DNA from: Streptomyces halstedii
GTDB taxonomy: Bacteria > Actinomycetota > Actinomycetes > Streptomycetales > Streptomycetaceae
NCBI GenBank assembly: GCA_000720535.1
Contig: JOAZ01000014.1
Location: 124,001 to 188,000, forward strand
Direction: 5' to 3'
Length of the DNA: 64,000 bases
Shown: positions 35,170 to 39,429 of the stretch, piece by piece
Position numbering within the stretch: position 1 is the stretch's first letter
Layout: the number at the start of each line of letters is the position of its first letter
Notes under the pieces: generated by a model
Seen by the model: the letters and a program-made list of their open reading frames with translations, nothing else
The model's database searches: none
What the model was told of the DNA's origin: nothing
Made by a program: the position numbers and the translations under genes

Positions 35170-35913
35170 GTGAGCAGCGACGACACCCCCGAGACCCTTC
35201 CCGCGACGGCCGCGGCCGACCCGTTCCGTCCGGAGCCGGCCACCCGCGACGAGGCGCCCCAGTACGTGCTACCGCTGGTGGTGCGTCTGGAGAAGACCGA
35301 TCCGCCCGCGCGCACCGACGCGCTGCGGACCGCCGCGCGCGCGGTGCTCACGATGCTGTCGGACGAACGTTCGCTGGGCGACGGGGAGTGGGCGCGGGCG
35401 ATGCGGGACTGGGAGGACGCCCGCATCCGCAAGGTGGTGCGCCGGGCGCGTGGCGCGGAGTGGCGCAAGGCGTGCGCGCTGCCGGGGATCACGGTCACGG
35501 GCGAGCGGGCCGAGGTCCGGGTGTTCCCGCCGGTCCCGCTGGACGGCTGGCCCAAGGAGCTGGCCAAGCTCCAGGTGTCCGGCACGGAGCTGGACGACCC
35601 CGAGCCCCCGCCGGTCCCCGACGGGACGGGGCCGGTGCTGTGGCTCAACCCCGAGCTGGACATGTCGGCGGGCAAGACGATGGCGCAGGCCGGGCACGGC
35701 GCCCAGCTCGCGTGGTGGGAGCTGTCCGGCGCCGAACGCGCGGCGTGGCGCGAGGCCGGGTTCCCGCTCTCCGTCGCCGCCCCGGAGGCCGAGCGCTGGC
35801 GCGAGCTGACCGTGAGCGGACTGCCGGTGGTCCGGGACGCGGGGTTCACCGAGATCGCGCCCGGCTCGTGCACGGTCGTCGCGGACCACCCGGCCCTGCG
35901 CCGCCGCCGCTGA
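35170..35913 (+). CDS. PTH2-type peptidyl-tRNA hydrolase with N-terminal extension
   Basis: 247 residues from GTG 35170. The C-terminal half (about 150-247) has the Pth2 core: LNPELDMSAGKTMAQAGHGAQLAWWEL and SGLPVVRDAGFTEIAPGSCTVVA. Pth2 enzymes release peptides from peptidyl-tRNA. They are usually about 120 residues, so the first 150 residues here (YVLPLVVRLEKTDPPARTDALR, then a basic helical region) are an extension that may bind tRNA. CAGACT ends 7 bp before the GTG and no ribosome site is seen, so leaderless expression is likely. Confidence 0.85.
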   Translation: MSSDDTPETLPATAAADPFRPEPATRDEAPQYVLPLVVRLEKTDPPARTDALRTAARAVLTMLSDERSLGDGEWARAMRDWEDARIRKVVRRARGAEWRKACALPGITVTGERAEVRVFPPVPLDGWPKELAKLQVSGTELDDPEPPPVPDGTGPVLWLNPELDMSAGKTMAQAGHGAQLAWWELSGAERAAWREAGFPLSVAAPEAERWRELTVSGLPVVRDAGFTEIAPGSCTVVADHPALRRRR

Positions 35914-36108: not shown

Positions 36109-37491
36109 ATGAAGCTGGGAATCGGCATCGGCTGGCGGCCCGAGATCGCGGACGCCGTCGAGGCACTGCCGGGTGTCGACTGGGTCGAGGCCGTGGCCGA
36201 GAACATCTGCGCCGACCATCTCCCCGAACCGCTCGCACGGCTCCGGGAGCGTGGGGTCACCGTCGTCCCGCACGGAGTCTCGCTGGGCCTGGGCGGGGCC
36301 GGCCGGCCCGGAGCGGACCGCCTCGCGGACCTGGCGGCACGGGCCGCCCTGCTGGACGCGCCGCTGGTGACGGAGCACATCGCGTTCGTACGGGCCGGGG
36401 GGCCGCTCACCGCGTCACCCGGGCTGGAGGCGGGCCATCTGCTGCCCGTGCCGCGCACCTGGGACGCGCTGGACGTGCTGTGCGAGAACGTACGCGTCGC
36501 CCAGGACTCGCTGCCCGTGCCGCTCGCCCTGGAGAACATCGCCGCGCTGATCGCCTGGCCGGACGAGGAGCTGACCGAGGGCCAGTTCCTCGCGGAACTG
36601 GTCGAACGCACCGGCGTACGCCTGCTGATCGACGTGGCCAACCTGCACACCAACCACGTCAACCGGGGCGAGGACCCCGCGACCGCGCTCGACGAACTGC
36701 CGGTGGAGGCCATCGCGTACGTCCATGTGGCGGGCGGGGTCGAGAAGGACGGCGTGTGGCACGACACACACGCCCACCCGGTGACGCGGCCCGTCCTGGA
36801 CGTGCTGACCGAGCTCCGGGCGCGGGTGGATCCCCCGGGTGTGCTGCTGGAACGCGACGACGCCTTCCCGCCCGCCGAGGAGCTGGCGGGCGAACTGACC
36901 GCGATCCGCGAGACCCTGGCGGCCGCCGCCCCGCCCGCCGCGTCGCGCTCCGCGCGGCCCGGCACGCGGCCCGGCACGCGGTCCGGGGAGCAGACCCCCG
37001 GGACGCGACCCGCTCCCGCGCCCGGGGCCCGGGAGCGGGTCGCGGTGGCGCAGACCGCGGTGCTCTCCTCGCTGGTGGCGGGCACCCCCGTGCCCGAGGG
37101 CTTCGACCACCGGCGGATGGCGGTGCAGAGCCGCGCCCTGGCCGCCAAACGGGCCGACGTCGTCGCCAAGGTCGCCCCGGAACTGCCGCTGATCCTCGGC
37201 GACGGCTACCGGCTGGCGTACCTCGGGTACGCCAGGACCCGCCCGCTGTCCGGCGGTTACCGCCGCGACGCGCTGGACTTCGCGGAGCACCTCCTCATCG
37301 CGGGGCTCCCGGCCGACGACGACGCCCGCCGTGGGCTGACCCGGTGGTGGCAGGACCGGGCGGCCCCCGGACCACCGCGCCGCGGGGCCCGTCTGGTCCG
37401 GGCGGCGCGTGACATGCGGGTCGTCCGGGCGGCGCGTACCGCCCTGTCGCGAACTCTGCCGGGAACCCGGTCGGGACGGGGGACCCGGTGA
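36109..37491 (+). CDS. DUF692 (MNIO) enzyme fused to a DUF2063-like partner domain
   Basis: 460 residues. Residues 1-272 are a DUF692 TIM barrel, the family now called multinuclear non-heme iron-dependent oxidative enzymes, which modify cysteines in peptides. Expected metal or active-site positions are present: His55, Glu89-His90, Glu142-Asn143, Asp175, Asn178, His180, His206, Asp219, His221, Glu248. A PGTR-rich linker (283-305) leads to a helical domain (308-378) whose [13 protein letters not shown] and [18 protein letters not shown] resemble the DUF2063 partner proteins of MNIO operons, followed by a basic tail. It overlaps the TIGR04222 gene by 4 bp, so that protein is the obvious partner or substrate. 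Function inferred, not known. Confidence 0.85.
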
Positions 37492-38507
37492 ACGCCCTCG
37501 CGCTCGTGTGCACCCTCGCCGTGGTGGTCTCCTGCGTCCTGCTGCTCGTCCTGCCCCCGGCATCGGGCCGCAGCAGGGGCGGCGGGGCAGGCGAACGGGT
37601 GCACGACCTCTCGGAGGCGGCCTTCCTGGGCGGTGGTCCGGCCAGGACGGTCGACACCGCGCTCACCGCCCTCTACGCGGACGGCCGCCTGGTGGTCGGC
37701 GGCCCCGGCATCGTCGCCGTACGCCGGGCGGCGGCCCGTGACGTGGTGGAGCGTGCCGTGCTCCAGGAGGCGGCCGCCGCGCCGAGCGGCGCCCTGCGCC
37801 CCCTGCGGGAGGCCGCGATGCGGCACCCGGCGGTGCAGGAGATCGGGGACGGACTGGCCGCCCGAGGGCTGCTGGCCCCACCGGGCGGCAACCGCGCGCG
37901 CCGCCGGTGGGCGCTCACCCAGGGCGTCGGGTGTGTCGTGGGCTTCCCCGTGAGCATCGGCCTGACCGTGGCTCAGTACGCCCTGCACGAGGGGTACGAC
38001 GACGTGCCGTTCCCGTTCGTGGTCAAGGTGCTGCCCGCGCTCGTCCTGGGCGCCGTCGTCGGTCTGGTCGTCGCGGCGTCCGCCAGGGCACGGCTCACCC
38101 GGGCGGGACGCCGGGCCGCCGACGCCTACCGGGCCGCCCACGCCCAGGTCGCCCACCCGGCCCACCTCGTGGCCACCCGGGGACTCGCCGCACTGCCCTA
38201 CCCCGAACTCCGGGAGCAGTTGCTGACCGCCGCCCGGCACAACTCCCCCGGCCGCACCGGCGGGATGGTCACGTCGGCGGGCGTGGGGGCGGGGGCGTAC
38301 GCCGGTCACAGCGGGCCGCAGCCGGTGTGGTGCGCGGGGGCCGCTCCCGGCGGCGGGAGCTGCGGCGGCAGCGGTGACGCGGGATCCGGGTCCTCGTGCG
38401 GTTCGGGCGGCGGGGACGGCGGAGGGCCGAGCTGCGGCGGGGGCTCAAGCTGCGGGGGCGGATCGAGCTGCGGCGGTGGGGGCGGGGGCTGCGGCAGCAG
38501 CTCGTGA
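37488..38507 (+). CDS. TIGR04222 membrane protein with seven-cysteine Gly/Ser tail
   Basis: 339 residues, started by a GTGA overlap with the DUF692 gene. Helix 1 (3-22) is followed by the soluble TIGR04222 domain (about 38-140, with [19 protein letters not shown]), helices 2 and 3 (about 142-163 and 176-197), a helical segment and a low-complexity tail (282-339). The tail holds Cys282, 292, 304, 316, 322, 328 and 335, each followed by Gly or Ala, in an otherwise Gly/Ser background. Positive residues follow helix 1 and helix 3, so domain and tail should face the cytoplasm, where the MNIO enzyme is. I infer that the tail is its substrate or a metal-binding element. Confidence 0.82.
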
Positions 38508-38607
38508 CGGCGGGATTTCAGCCATCCACGACCACGTGTGACCCTTTTCTGTCCGGATCGTGAACAGACCATGGCGCACGCGTGCCCCTCTCGCATAGAA
38601 ATCCGCC

Positions 38608-39429
38608 ATGCTCTGGGTCTTGTTCCTCCTGGTCGCATGGGGCGCGGCGGCCGTCTCCTGCGTTCGGCTCTGCCTCGTCACCGCGGGCGCCGCGCTGCGA
38701 TCGTCCGACGCCCCGGGTGCCCCCGGTGCTCCCGGCACCCCGCTGCCCCGCGATCTCAGCCTGTACGAGACGGCGTTCCTGGCCGGCGGACCGCACCGGG
38801 TGGCGGATCTGGCGCTGGTCTCGATGCATCTGCGGCGCCGGCTGCTGCTCGCCCACACGGGCTGGGCGACGGTCGTCGATCCGGTGGGCCGCGACGAGGT
38901 GGAGCGCACCGTGATCCGGGCGATCGGCCCGGAGGGGCAGTCCCGGATAGCGCCGATACGGGCGGCCGCTGCCGCCGCAGACACCGTGCGCGGGCTCGCG
39001 GACCGTCTGGTGGCCGCCGGACTGGCCGTACCGCACGGCACGCGGACCACCCTGGAGTCGGCCACCCGGGGAGTACGGGGCGCCGCGGTGCTGGTGGTGG
39101 TGCTGGCCGCGGTGACCGCGCTGATGCCCGGTCAGGACACGGGCGACGCGGGCCCGGTTGCCGCGTGGTTCGGGCTGCCGCTGGTACTGACCCTGGGGTG
39201 CCTGGCCATCGCCCACGCGGAGAGCAGGCCGTACAGCCCGTGGGCCTCGCCGCCCGGCCAGCGGTGGCTGGACTCGCTGCCCGCCCCGGCGCACGGCGCG
39301 GACCGCGAGATGCTGGCGGCGGTGGCCGTACGGGGGGTGGCGGCGGTGCGGGACCCGCGGCTCCGGGCGGCGCTGCTCGGCGGCCGTCCCGCGCGTCTGC
39401 CCGGCCGGTCACCGGGCGTGGAGAGCTGA
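38608..39429 (+). CDS. TIGR04222 paralogue without the cysteine tail
   Basis: 273 residues from ATG 38608; the box TAGAAA ends 6 bp upstream and there is no ribosome site. Same plan as the preceding protein: helix 1 (1-20), soluble domain with SLYETAFLAGGPHRVADLALVSM (about 50-150), two more helices (about 152-170 and 180-200), then a short C-terminal helical region ending in basic residues. It lacks the Gly/Cys tail. It lies 100 bp downstream on the same strand and probably belongs to the same functional unit, possibly as a partner of the tailed protein. Confidence 0.78.
   Translation: MLWVLFLLVAWGAAAVSCVRLCLVTAGAALRSSDAPGAPGAPGTPLPRDLSLYETAFLAGGPHRVADLALVSMHLRRRLLLAHTGWATVVDPVGRDEVERTVIRAIGPEGQSRIAPIRAAAAAADTVRGLADRLVAAGLAVPHGTRTTLESATRGVRGAAVLVVVLAAVTALMPGQDTGDAGPVAAWFGLPLVLTLGCLAIAHAESRPYSPWASPPGQRWLDSLPAPAHGADREMLAAVAVRGVAAVRDPRLRAALLGGRPARLPGRSPGVES

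What the first reader, a model, noticed from the sequence alone, without database searches (positions are those of the whole stretch)
36109..39429. DUF692 (MNIO) enzyme operon with a membrane-tethered cysteine tail as candidate substrate
The DUF692 gene overlaps by 4 bp a TIGR04222 membrane protein whose last 58 residues hold seven cysteines in Gly/Ser; a tail-less TIGR04222 gene follows. Characterised MNIO enzymes modify cysteines in ribosomal peptides, with a small secreted precursor and no membrane anchor. Here the presumed substrate is fixed in the membrane, and by the positive-inside rule the tail faces the cytosol with the enzyme. There is no exporter, protease or leader peptide, so this looks like a different use of MNIO chemistry: perhaps a modified metal-binding or redox surface at the inner face of the membrane.
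Basis: partly seen in the sequence, partly recalled or inferred. Interest (0 to 1): 0.9.

Follow-up and report, generated by a model that had tools for sequence, protein, structure and literature searches.

The report
Membrane-anchored cysteine tails beside MNIO enzyme
A Streptomyces iron enzyme of a kind known to rebuild cysteines in small copper-binding peptides appears to serve Gly/Ser/Cys tails fixed to the inner face of the cell membrane, one tail encoded next to it and a second, on a small protein, encoded elsewhere in the genome.

Summary
In detail: a DUF692 (MNIO) gene overlaps by 4 bp a TIGR04222 membrane protein whose last 58 residues hold seven Cys; a tail-less TIGR04222 gene follows. 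That TIGR04222 tails are putative MNIO substrates, with this gene order, is already in print (Antoine 2025, PMC12452194).

Four results go further. (1) The MNIO carries a C-terminal DUF2063-like partner domain, separate in relatives. (3) The neighbouring tail is dispensable: 30 of 58 fused Streptomyces loci lack it, yet the enzyme stays conserved. (4) 74 of 80 assessable MNIO-bearing Streptomyces encode an unlinked 70-120-residue protein: one helix, Arg-rich patch, usually WW, Gly/Ser/Cys tail. It has at least 3 Cys in 72 of those 74, and in 3 of 12 MNIO-less genomes; phylogenetic independence is not shown.

Best reading: MNIO plus fused partner modifies Cys in membrane-tethered tails at the cytosolic face, in cis and in trans, perhaps to 5-thiooxazoles. 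No modification has been measured.

The parts
36109..37491 (+). MNIO::partner fusion gene (460 aa): DUF692/MNIO domain (residues 4-270, nt 36118-36918), low-confidence linker, helical partner domain (about residues 306-460, nt 37024-37488)
   Evidence: Pfam; AlphaFold model mean pLDDT 92.3, linker blocks 52-79; Foldseek best hits TglH, 3bww, MbnB; conserved active-site residues; partner domain
37488..38507 (+). TIGR04222 protein A with Cys tail; three hydrophobic segments at about residues 2-21, 143-165 and 177-199
   Evidence: NCBIfam 153 bits against cut-off 43; hydropathy and charge; model mean pLDDT 81.5
38325..38504 (+). Cys tail of A: VWCAG at residue 280, 7 Cys at residues 282, 292, 304, 316, 322, 328, 335; predicted disordered
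38608..39429 (+). TIGR04222 protein B, tail-less; CxxLC (Cys 18 and 22) at the end of the first hydrophobic segment
   Evidence: NCBIfam 144.6 bits; CxxLC in 35 of 42 B-type and CxxxC in 0 of 48 A-type proteins
35170..35913 (+). PTH2-like gene upstream (start uncertain), matching the 'adjamnio-II' of Antoine 2025 by domain and gene order
   Evidence: Pfam PTH2 E 4.9e-9; gene order in PMC12452194 Table 2

Best explanation
The MNIO with its fused DUF2063-like partner domain is a cytosolic modification enzyme for low-complexity Gly/Ser/Cys tails held at the inner face of the membrane. In this window the tail sits on TIGR04222 protein A, encoded in the same operon. In 74 of 80 assessable MNIO-bearing Streptomyces genomes, this one included (G000 contig C12, 189496-189783, outside the window), a second tail sits on a small single-helix protein (here called mini-tail) encoded at an unlinked locus, as a rule upstream of a DUF2617 gene. 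The likely chemistry is oxidation of Cys followed by Gly, Ser or Ala, most plausibly to 5-thiooxazole as in bufferins and captophorins. The likely use is a membrane-surface copper or thiophilic-metal trap. Shown here by computation: domain architecture, partner homology, charge topology, co-occurrence, persistence of the enzyme without A. Inferred: that tails are modified, the product, and the function.
For: Partner: the C-terminal domain is a separate ORF by the MNIO in 19 loci; 5 of 31 members hit Pfam DUF2063 at E up to 0.1, best 3e-4; hhalign against six annotated bufferin-operon partners scores 27.6, against at most 18.6 in 60 column shuffles and 12.0 reversed. Co-occurrence: non-Streptomyces Cys tails 13 of 14 genomes with MNIO, 1 of 13 without. 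Mini-tail: at least 3 Cys in 72 of 74 MNIO genomes and 3 of 12 MNIO-less ones; 26 of 27 assessable Streptomyces lacking A have it. Mini-tails lie beside the MNIO or partner gene in L205, L240, L242, L244. Motif: W precedes the first Cys of the last 85 residues in 28 of 56 TIGR04222 tails; WW in 47 of 50 MNIO+ mini-tails and 0 of 7 MNIO-less ones in that set. Residue after Cys is Gly, Ser or Ala in 355 of 358 in those 56 tails, close to the small-residue preference of FonBC (Gly or Ala; PMC13097082 passages). Topology by K+R 106 of 106 and 57 of 57. Without A the enzyme keeps nine listed residues in 31 of 31 fused loci and median dN/dS 0.10 (A+ 0.12; 15 sequences each).
Against: No mass-spectrometric or metal data. 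Published topology says periplasm (PMC12452194). Phylogenetic independence of the mini-tail Cys/MNIO link is not established: one contrast on well-supported branches, three on all. Three MNIO-less genomes (G155, G241, G303) have Cys-rich mini-tails with WW; they are fragmented assemblies (740, 1420, 120 contigs; G303 has 6% contamination), but a true lack is possible. Six MNIO genomes have no mini-tail found at the locus or by profile (G157 also lacks A; G164, G197, G205, G181, G183 have A). The partner domain lacks the RRE half of BufC, so how substrates are recognised is open; hhalign's own probability for the DUF2063 link is only 12.8%. Mini-tails of G199 (2 Cys) and G235 (1 Cys) are poor in Cys despite an MNIO, and the operon-linked mini-tail of G055 has one Cys.
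Confidence: 0.55

Rival explanations
1. The tails face outside the cell (as Antoine 2025 states): TIGR04222 proteins are inserted the other way round and the tail is modified before or during insertion, then works outside like a bufferin.
For: Published statement based on predicted topology; bufferins carry Sec signal peptides; export of some modified tails is not excluded.
Against: K+R on the flanks after helix 1, before helix 2 and after helix 3 exceed those on the other side in 106 of 106 TIGR04222 sequences and 47 of 47 Cys-tailed ones; by net charge 88 of 106 and 47 of 47. Mini-tails have no K/R before and a mean of 6.0 in the 30 residues after their single helix in 57 of 57, with start codons chosen by me.
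Confidence: 0.15
2. The tails are plain, unmodified metal- or thiol-reactive tails; the MNIO acts on something else and the two merely share a stress function.
For: No modification was measured; the MNIO persists in 30 of 58 fused loci without tail A; G157 has an MNIO and neither A nor a detected mini-tail.
Against: Cys tails on unrelated anchors (three-helix TIGR04222, one-helix mini-tail) lie in MNIO loci; 26 of 27 assessable A-less genomes have a mini-tail; tail Cys are few in 9 of 12 MNIO-less genomes.
Confidence: 0.2
3. The true common substrate is the tail-less protein B or another conserved neighbour; CxxLC of B is the target.
For: B is kept in 25 of 30 A-less fused loci and CxxLC occurs in 35 of 42 B-type proteins.
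Against: B is missing from 12 of 28 A-bearing fused loci and CxxLC lies at the end of a hydrophobic helix, an awkward substrate.
Confidence: 0.07
4. The tails are low-complexity products of repeat slippage in GC-rich DNA without function.
For: Tail length and Cys number vary widely.
Against: Cys count tracks MNIO presence in the genomes read; WW and WC motifs recur; the residue after Cys is Gly, Ser or Ala in 355 of 358, though Gly/Ser-rich sequence alone would favour this.
Confidence: 0.03

Closest known systems
TIGR04222 proteins associated with MNIO (Antoine et al. 2025, PMC12452194; abstract, sections 17 and 18, and passages seen)
   Same: Same families, same C-terminal Ser/Gly/Cys tails, same proposal that subsets are MNIO substrates, and the same PTH2-MNIO-TIGR04222 order.
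   Different: They place the tail in the periplasm and note that many such clusters appear to have no partner gene; here the tail is predicted cytosolic and a DUF2063-like partner is fused to the MNIO. An unlinked mini-tail protein is not described in the parts I saw; their MNIO-following 'adjamnio-V' very small proteins might include the operon-linked mini-tails (supplementary figure not available).
Bufferins / captophorins (BufABC, FonABC; passages of PMC12452194 and PMC13097082 seen)
   Same: MNIO plus DUF2063-type partner acting on repeated Cys, for FonBC mostly with a small residue after Cys; copper handling there.
   Different: Those precursors carry Sec signal peptides and a partner with an RRE; here candidate substrates are membrane-anchored with no basic stretch before the first helix, the partner is fused and lacks the RRE half, and one candidate substrate is unlinked.
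Pearlin TglHI and methanobactin MbnBC (solved structures)
   Same: Enzyme fold: Foldseek best hits include 8hci, 8hi7, 7dz9, 7tcr.
   Different: Small precursors and separate partners (from recalled literature and the entry titles).

Membership tests
MNIO (PF05114) | Domain profile over cut-off | tested here: met
   256 bits against 25
MNIO (PF05114) | Conserved H/E/D/N active-site residues | tested here: met
   H55, H90, E142, D175, H206, D219, H221, E248 in 87 of 87 aligned, N178 in 86 of 87; their role as metal ligands is recalled
Bufferin maturase BufB / HvfB equivalogs | NCBIfam equivalog cut-off | tested here: not met
   172.4 bits against 310 and 138 against 360
TIGR04222 | NCBIfam cut-off 43 bits | tested here: met
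   A 153.0, B 144.6
DUF2063-type MNIO partner (PME-type 1/2 of Antoine 2025) | Homology to DUF2063 | tested here: met
   hhalign pair E 0.0022 (tool probability 12.8%), score above 60 of 60 shuffles; 5 of 31 members hit PF09836 at E up to 0.1, best 3e-4; the window's own domain does not. Remote homology, fold not compared
DUF2063-type MNIO partner (PME-type 1) | RRE domain after the DUF2063 domain | tested here: not met
   About 155 residues, all helical; only the first ~100 residues of the 251-274-residue partners align
Bufferin / captophorin RiPP | Precursor with Sec signal peptide | tested here: not met
   No basic stretch before the first helix: 1.1 K+R per 100 residues in TIGR04222, mean 0.0 in 57 mini-tails; no signal-peptide program was available
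Bufferin / captophorin RiPP | Cys converted to 5-thiooxazole, copper binding | not testable with these tools
   needs mass spectrometry

The most novel reading that the evidence does not exclude
A chromosomal MNIO::partner enzyme (an MNIO gene is present in 284 of 296 Streptomyces genomes searched; 58 of 66 Streptomyces MNIO loci read are fused) modifies in trans a family of unlinked membrane-anchored mini-tail proteins as well as TIGR04222 tails, building a layer of oxidised-cysteine ligands on the cytosolic face of the membrane: protein modification by an MNIO as a cell-wide function rather than peptide natural-product synthesis.
Probability: 0.42. Interest if true: 0.82.

Novelty: new variant of a known kind. 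Interest (0 to 1): 0.7.

Why it matters
MNIO enzymes are known as makers of small metal-binding peptides. If the fused enzyme of Streptomyces works instead on membrane proteins from inside the cell, it is a protein-modifying enzyme with targets that gene-neighbourhood mining misses. It also offers an answer to a point left open in the 2025 survey, why many TIGR04222-MNIO clusters seem to lack a partner gene: here the partner is fused. And it gives concrete candidate substrates (protein A and the mini-tail), a testable motif (WW/WC plus Cys-Gly/Ser repeats), and natural controls (MNIO-less species with Cys-poor tails).

Tried and rejected
Dedicated enzyme-tail pair: rejected after A proved absent from 30 of 58 fused Streptomyces loci with the enzyme intact. 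DUF4142 product as replacement substrate: it lies between MNIO and B in L156 and is a DUF4142 there, but its L156 protein has no Cys and the family occurs in A-bearing loci too; not pursued. Fold of the TIGR04222 body: model mean pLDDT 81.5, best Foldseek match to a solved structure E 0.89; weak sequence-profile hits to Crp/Fnr regulators at E 0.04 or worse are only a lead. Profile search of PDB sequences with the partner alignment: 0 hits. The pattern search for Cys-Gly tails was no more frequent than its backwards control in many genomes and its list was cut off; only reading three of its places gave the mini-tail (two were mini-tails, the third, in G101, was no tail). Phylogenetic test on the DUF2617 tree is underpowered.

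Rows dropped before counts: non-Streptomyces tail counts use only regions that I fetched (27 genomes with a closed TIGR04222 ORF; weak TIGR04222 hits of 12 MNIO-less genomes and of G020 were not fetched; L213, L215 and L231 gave no hit with my profile and L217 is open-ended). Mini-tail: 85 MNIO-bearing Streptomyces genomes were looked at; 74 have one, 6 have none found (G157, G164, G197, G205, G181, G183), 5 are not assessable (contig edges G163, G160, G174, G220; no DUF2617 hit G148). The 74 are 71 (69 with at least 3 Cys) plus G150, G326 and G339 read, where the gene lay farther from DUF2617. Of 13 MNIO-less genomes 12 have one, G402 none found; the 12 include G196 (82% complete). Second DUF2617 copies were read but not counted. 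Profile matches in G017, G069, G072, G095, G100 and G142 are weak (E 2e-4 to 9e-3), most with stops inside; those printed gave no mini-tail.
Full report
WHAT IS THERE. The window lies in genome G000 (7.74 Mb, 105 contigs), taken to be a Streptomyces because its closest named relatives are; 'Streptomyces' below means genomes marked 'same genus'. At 36109-37491 is a DUF692/MNIO gene, overlapping by 4 bp a TIGR04222 gene with a Cys tail (A, 37488-38507), followed by a tail-less TIGR04222 gene (B, 38608-39429). A PTH2-like gene lies upstream; HemQ and protoporphyrinogen oxidase genes follow on the other strand. The genome has one PF05114 match and two TIGR04222 matches, all here. The tail is not chance: it is the only one of 511 closed stop-to-stop ORFs in the window with such a Cys/Gly/Ser end.

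ALREADY IN PRINT. Antoine et al. 2025 (PMC12452194; abstract, sections 17 and 18, and passages seen) describe TIGR04222 proteins as putative MNIO substrates with C-terminal Ser/Gly/Cys tails, list the order PTH2-MNIO-TIGR04222, put the tails in the periplasm, count 490 of 1372 TIGR04222 genomes without MNIO, and note that many such clusters appear to lack partner genes. A full-text search for TIGR04222 with DUF692 found only this paper.

FUSED PARTNER. The MNIO model is confident (mean pLDDT 92.3) and shows a second, all-helical domain after a low-confidence linker. In 19 loci this domain is a separate ORF by the MNIO: 6 Streptomyces loci and 13 loci of other members of the class. It is related to DUF2063, the partner of bufferin enzymes: 5 of 31 members hit PF09836 at E up to 0.1 (best 3e-4; the window's own domain does not), and the profile-profile score against six annotated bufferin-operon partners is 27.6, above 60 of 60 column shuffles (highest 18.6) and the reversed profile (12.0) (the tool's own probability is only 12.8%). 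It lacks the RRE half. This offers an answer to why partners look absent from such clusters.

TOPOLOGY. Family-wide hydropathy gives three segments. The flanks after segment 1, before segment 2 and after segment 3 hold 17.2, 16.5 and 14.9 K+R per 100 residues, against 1.1 before segment 1 and 3.3 in the loop between segments 2 and 3. By K+R the direction is the same in 106 of 106 sequences, 47 of 47 Cys-tailed; by net charge in 88 of 106, 47 of 47 Cys-tailed. By the positive-inside rule the N-terminus is out and the tail in.

DOES THE TAIL GO WITH THE ENZYME? Outside Streptomyces, among 27 genomes with a readable TIGR04222 protein, Cys tails (at least 3 Cys in the last 60 residues) occur in 13 of 14 with an MNIO and 1 of 13 without, the one having an MNIO fragment at its contig edge. 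By gene position, 3 of 15 tails there and 5 of 41 in Streptomyces are not near an MNIO although the genome has one. The reverse fails: of 66 Streptomyces MNIO loci read, 58 are fused, 6 have a separate partner and 2 none; of the 58 fused, 28 have a Cys-tailed neighbour and 30 do not. On a quick MNIO tree those 30 are one group of 29 (support 93, not starred) plus one other. In the 31 fused A-less loci (these 30 and L243) H55, H90, E142, D175, N178, H206, D219, H221 and E248 are kept in 31 of 31; median pairwise dN/dS is 0.10 without A and 0.12 with A (105 and 42 pairs from 15 chosen sequences each). Five genomes with a full MNIO have no TIGR04222 hit (sensitivity limited by partial scoring). 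A second, named sample of close relatives has A in 68 of 81 loci, biased towards the window's own branch.

A SECOND TAIL ELSEWHERE. A pattern search in 30 A-less genomes led to an unlinked small gene: one N-terminal helix, an Arg-rich stretch, WW, and a Gly/Ser/Cys (often His) tail, lying upstream of a DUF2617 gene (Pfam). I read the DUF2617 locus across the genus and profiled exceptions. Of 85 MNIO-bearing genomes looked at, 74 have one, 6 have none found, 5 are not assessable; the window's own genome has one. With at least 3 Cys: 72 of the 74, and 3 of 12 MNIO-less (Fisher p 2e-8, no correction for kinship). Nine MNIO-less genomes keep a homologue with 0-2 Cys; WW is in 0 of the 7 of these tested and in 47 of 50 MNIO+ ones. 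The three exceptions (G155, G241, G303) have WW and Cys-rich tails and are fragmented assemblies. Of 27 assessable A-less MNIO genomes, 26 have a mini-tail; G157 has neither. Five genomes with a separate partner gene (G164, G197, G205, G181, G183) have A but no mini-tail detected; the sixth, G189, has both. On the weak DUF2617 tree MNIO changes six times at best but only one contrast rests on well-supported branches, so independence is not shown.

GENETIC LINK. In other members of the class mini-tails sit in the MNIO locus itself: between TIGR04222 and MNIO in L205 (one Cys), between MNIO and partner in L240 and L242, after the partner in L244. Two neighbouring mini-tails occur in G107 (L503) and mini-tail-like genes in G031, both MNIO-bearing. 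The five MNIO-less non-Streptomyces genomes scanned had none (G019, G041, G059, G113, G134), but neither had several MNIO-bearing ones (G056, G093, G122, G078, G128, G131, G038), two of which (G122, G078) do carry an MNIO-locus mini-tail (L242, L244), so this profile misses divergent copies.

MECHANISM PROPOSED. The enzyme and its fused partner meet flexible tails at the cytosolic face. The shared WW/WC motif may be a recognition point; the partner has no RRE. The product is guessed to be 5-thiooxazole; function, a membrane-bound trap for copper or similar metals. These steps are inference.

NOVELTY. The TIGR04222-MNIO link is known. The fused partner, the reversed topology, the loss of A with retention of the enzyme, and the unlinked mini-tail were not in the parts of PMC12452194 I saw nor in the listings of my searches (open-licence papers only, listings capped). 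I therefore rate it a new variant of a known kind.

Noticed in passing
38608-39429 (protein B): B-type TIGR04222 proteins keep CxxLC at the end of their first hydrophobic segment in 35 of 42; A-type have CxxxC there in 0 of 48.
   Followed up: partly
G000:C12:189496-189783 (L379:781-1068), outside the window: The window's own genome encodes a mini-tail (96 aa, three tail Cys, several His) upstream of its DUF2617 gene.
   Followed up: yes
L432 (G167), L436 (G149), L410 (G151), L381 (G153): Two or three mini-tail-like ORFs stand close together at the DUF2617 locus.
   Followed up: no
L156:2981-3772: A DUF4142 gene without Cys lies between the MNIO and B in L156; similar genes occur in many other A-less and some A-bearing loci.
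   Followed up: partly
L218:3776-4792: A TIGR04222 Cys tail runs straight into sequence resembling the partner domain, perhaps a relic of a deletion that removed the MNIO.
   Followed up: no
L209:5804-6163: An 8-Cys Gly/Ser tail lies in another frame just after a tail-less TIGR04222 body and before the MNIO: frameshift or separate gene.
   Followed up: no
37488-38507 (body of A): Weak profile hits to Crp/Fnr and other regulators (E 0.04 or worse) and a helix-strand-strand pattern in the model hint at winged-helix-like cytosolic domains.
   Followed up: partly
PMC4991794 table (one passage): SCO6045 is listed at 3.01-fold in an HbpS-SenS-SenR RNA-seq table; that SCO6045 is the S. coelicolor orthologue of this MNIO is my recollection, not checked.
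   Followed up: no
G177, G230, G238, G289, G325, G351, G372: Some Streptomyces carry an MNIO scoring far higher on PF05114 (E about 1e-106 or below), apparently another subfamily.
   Followed up: no
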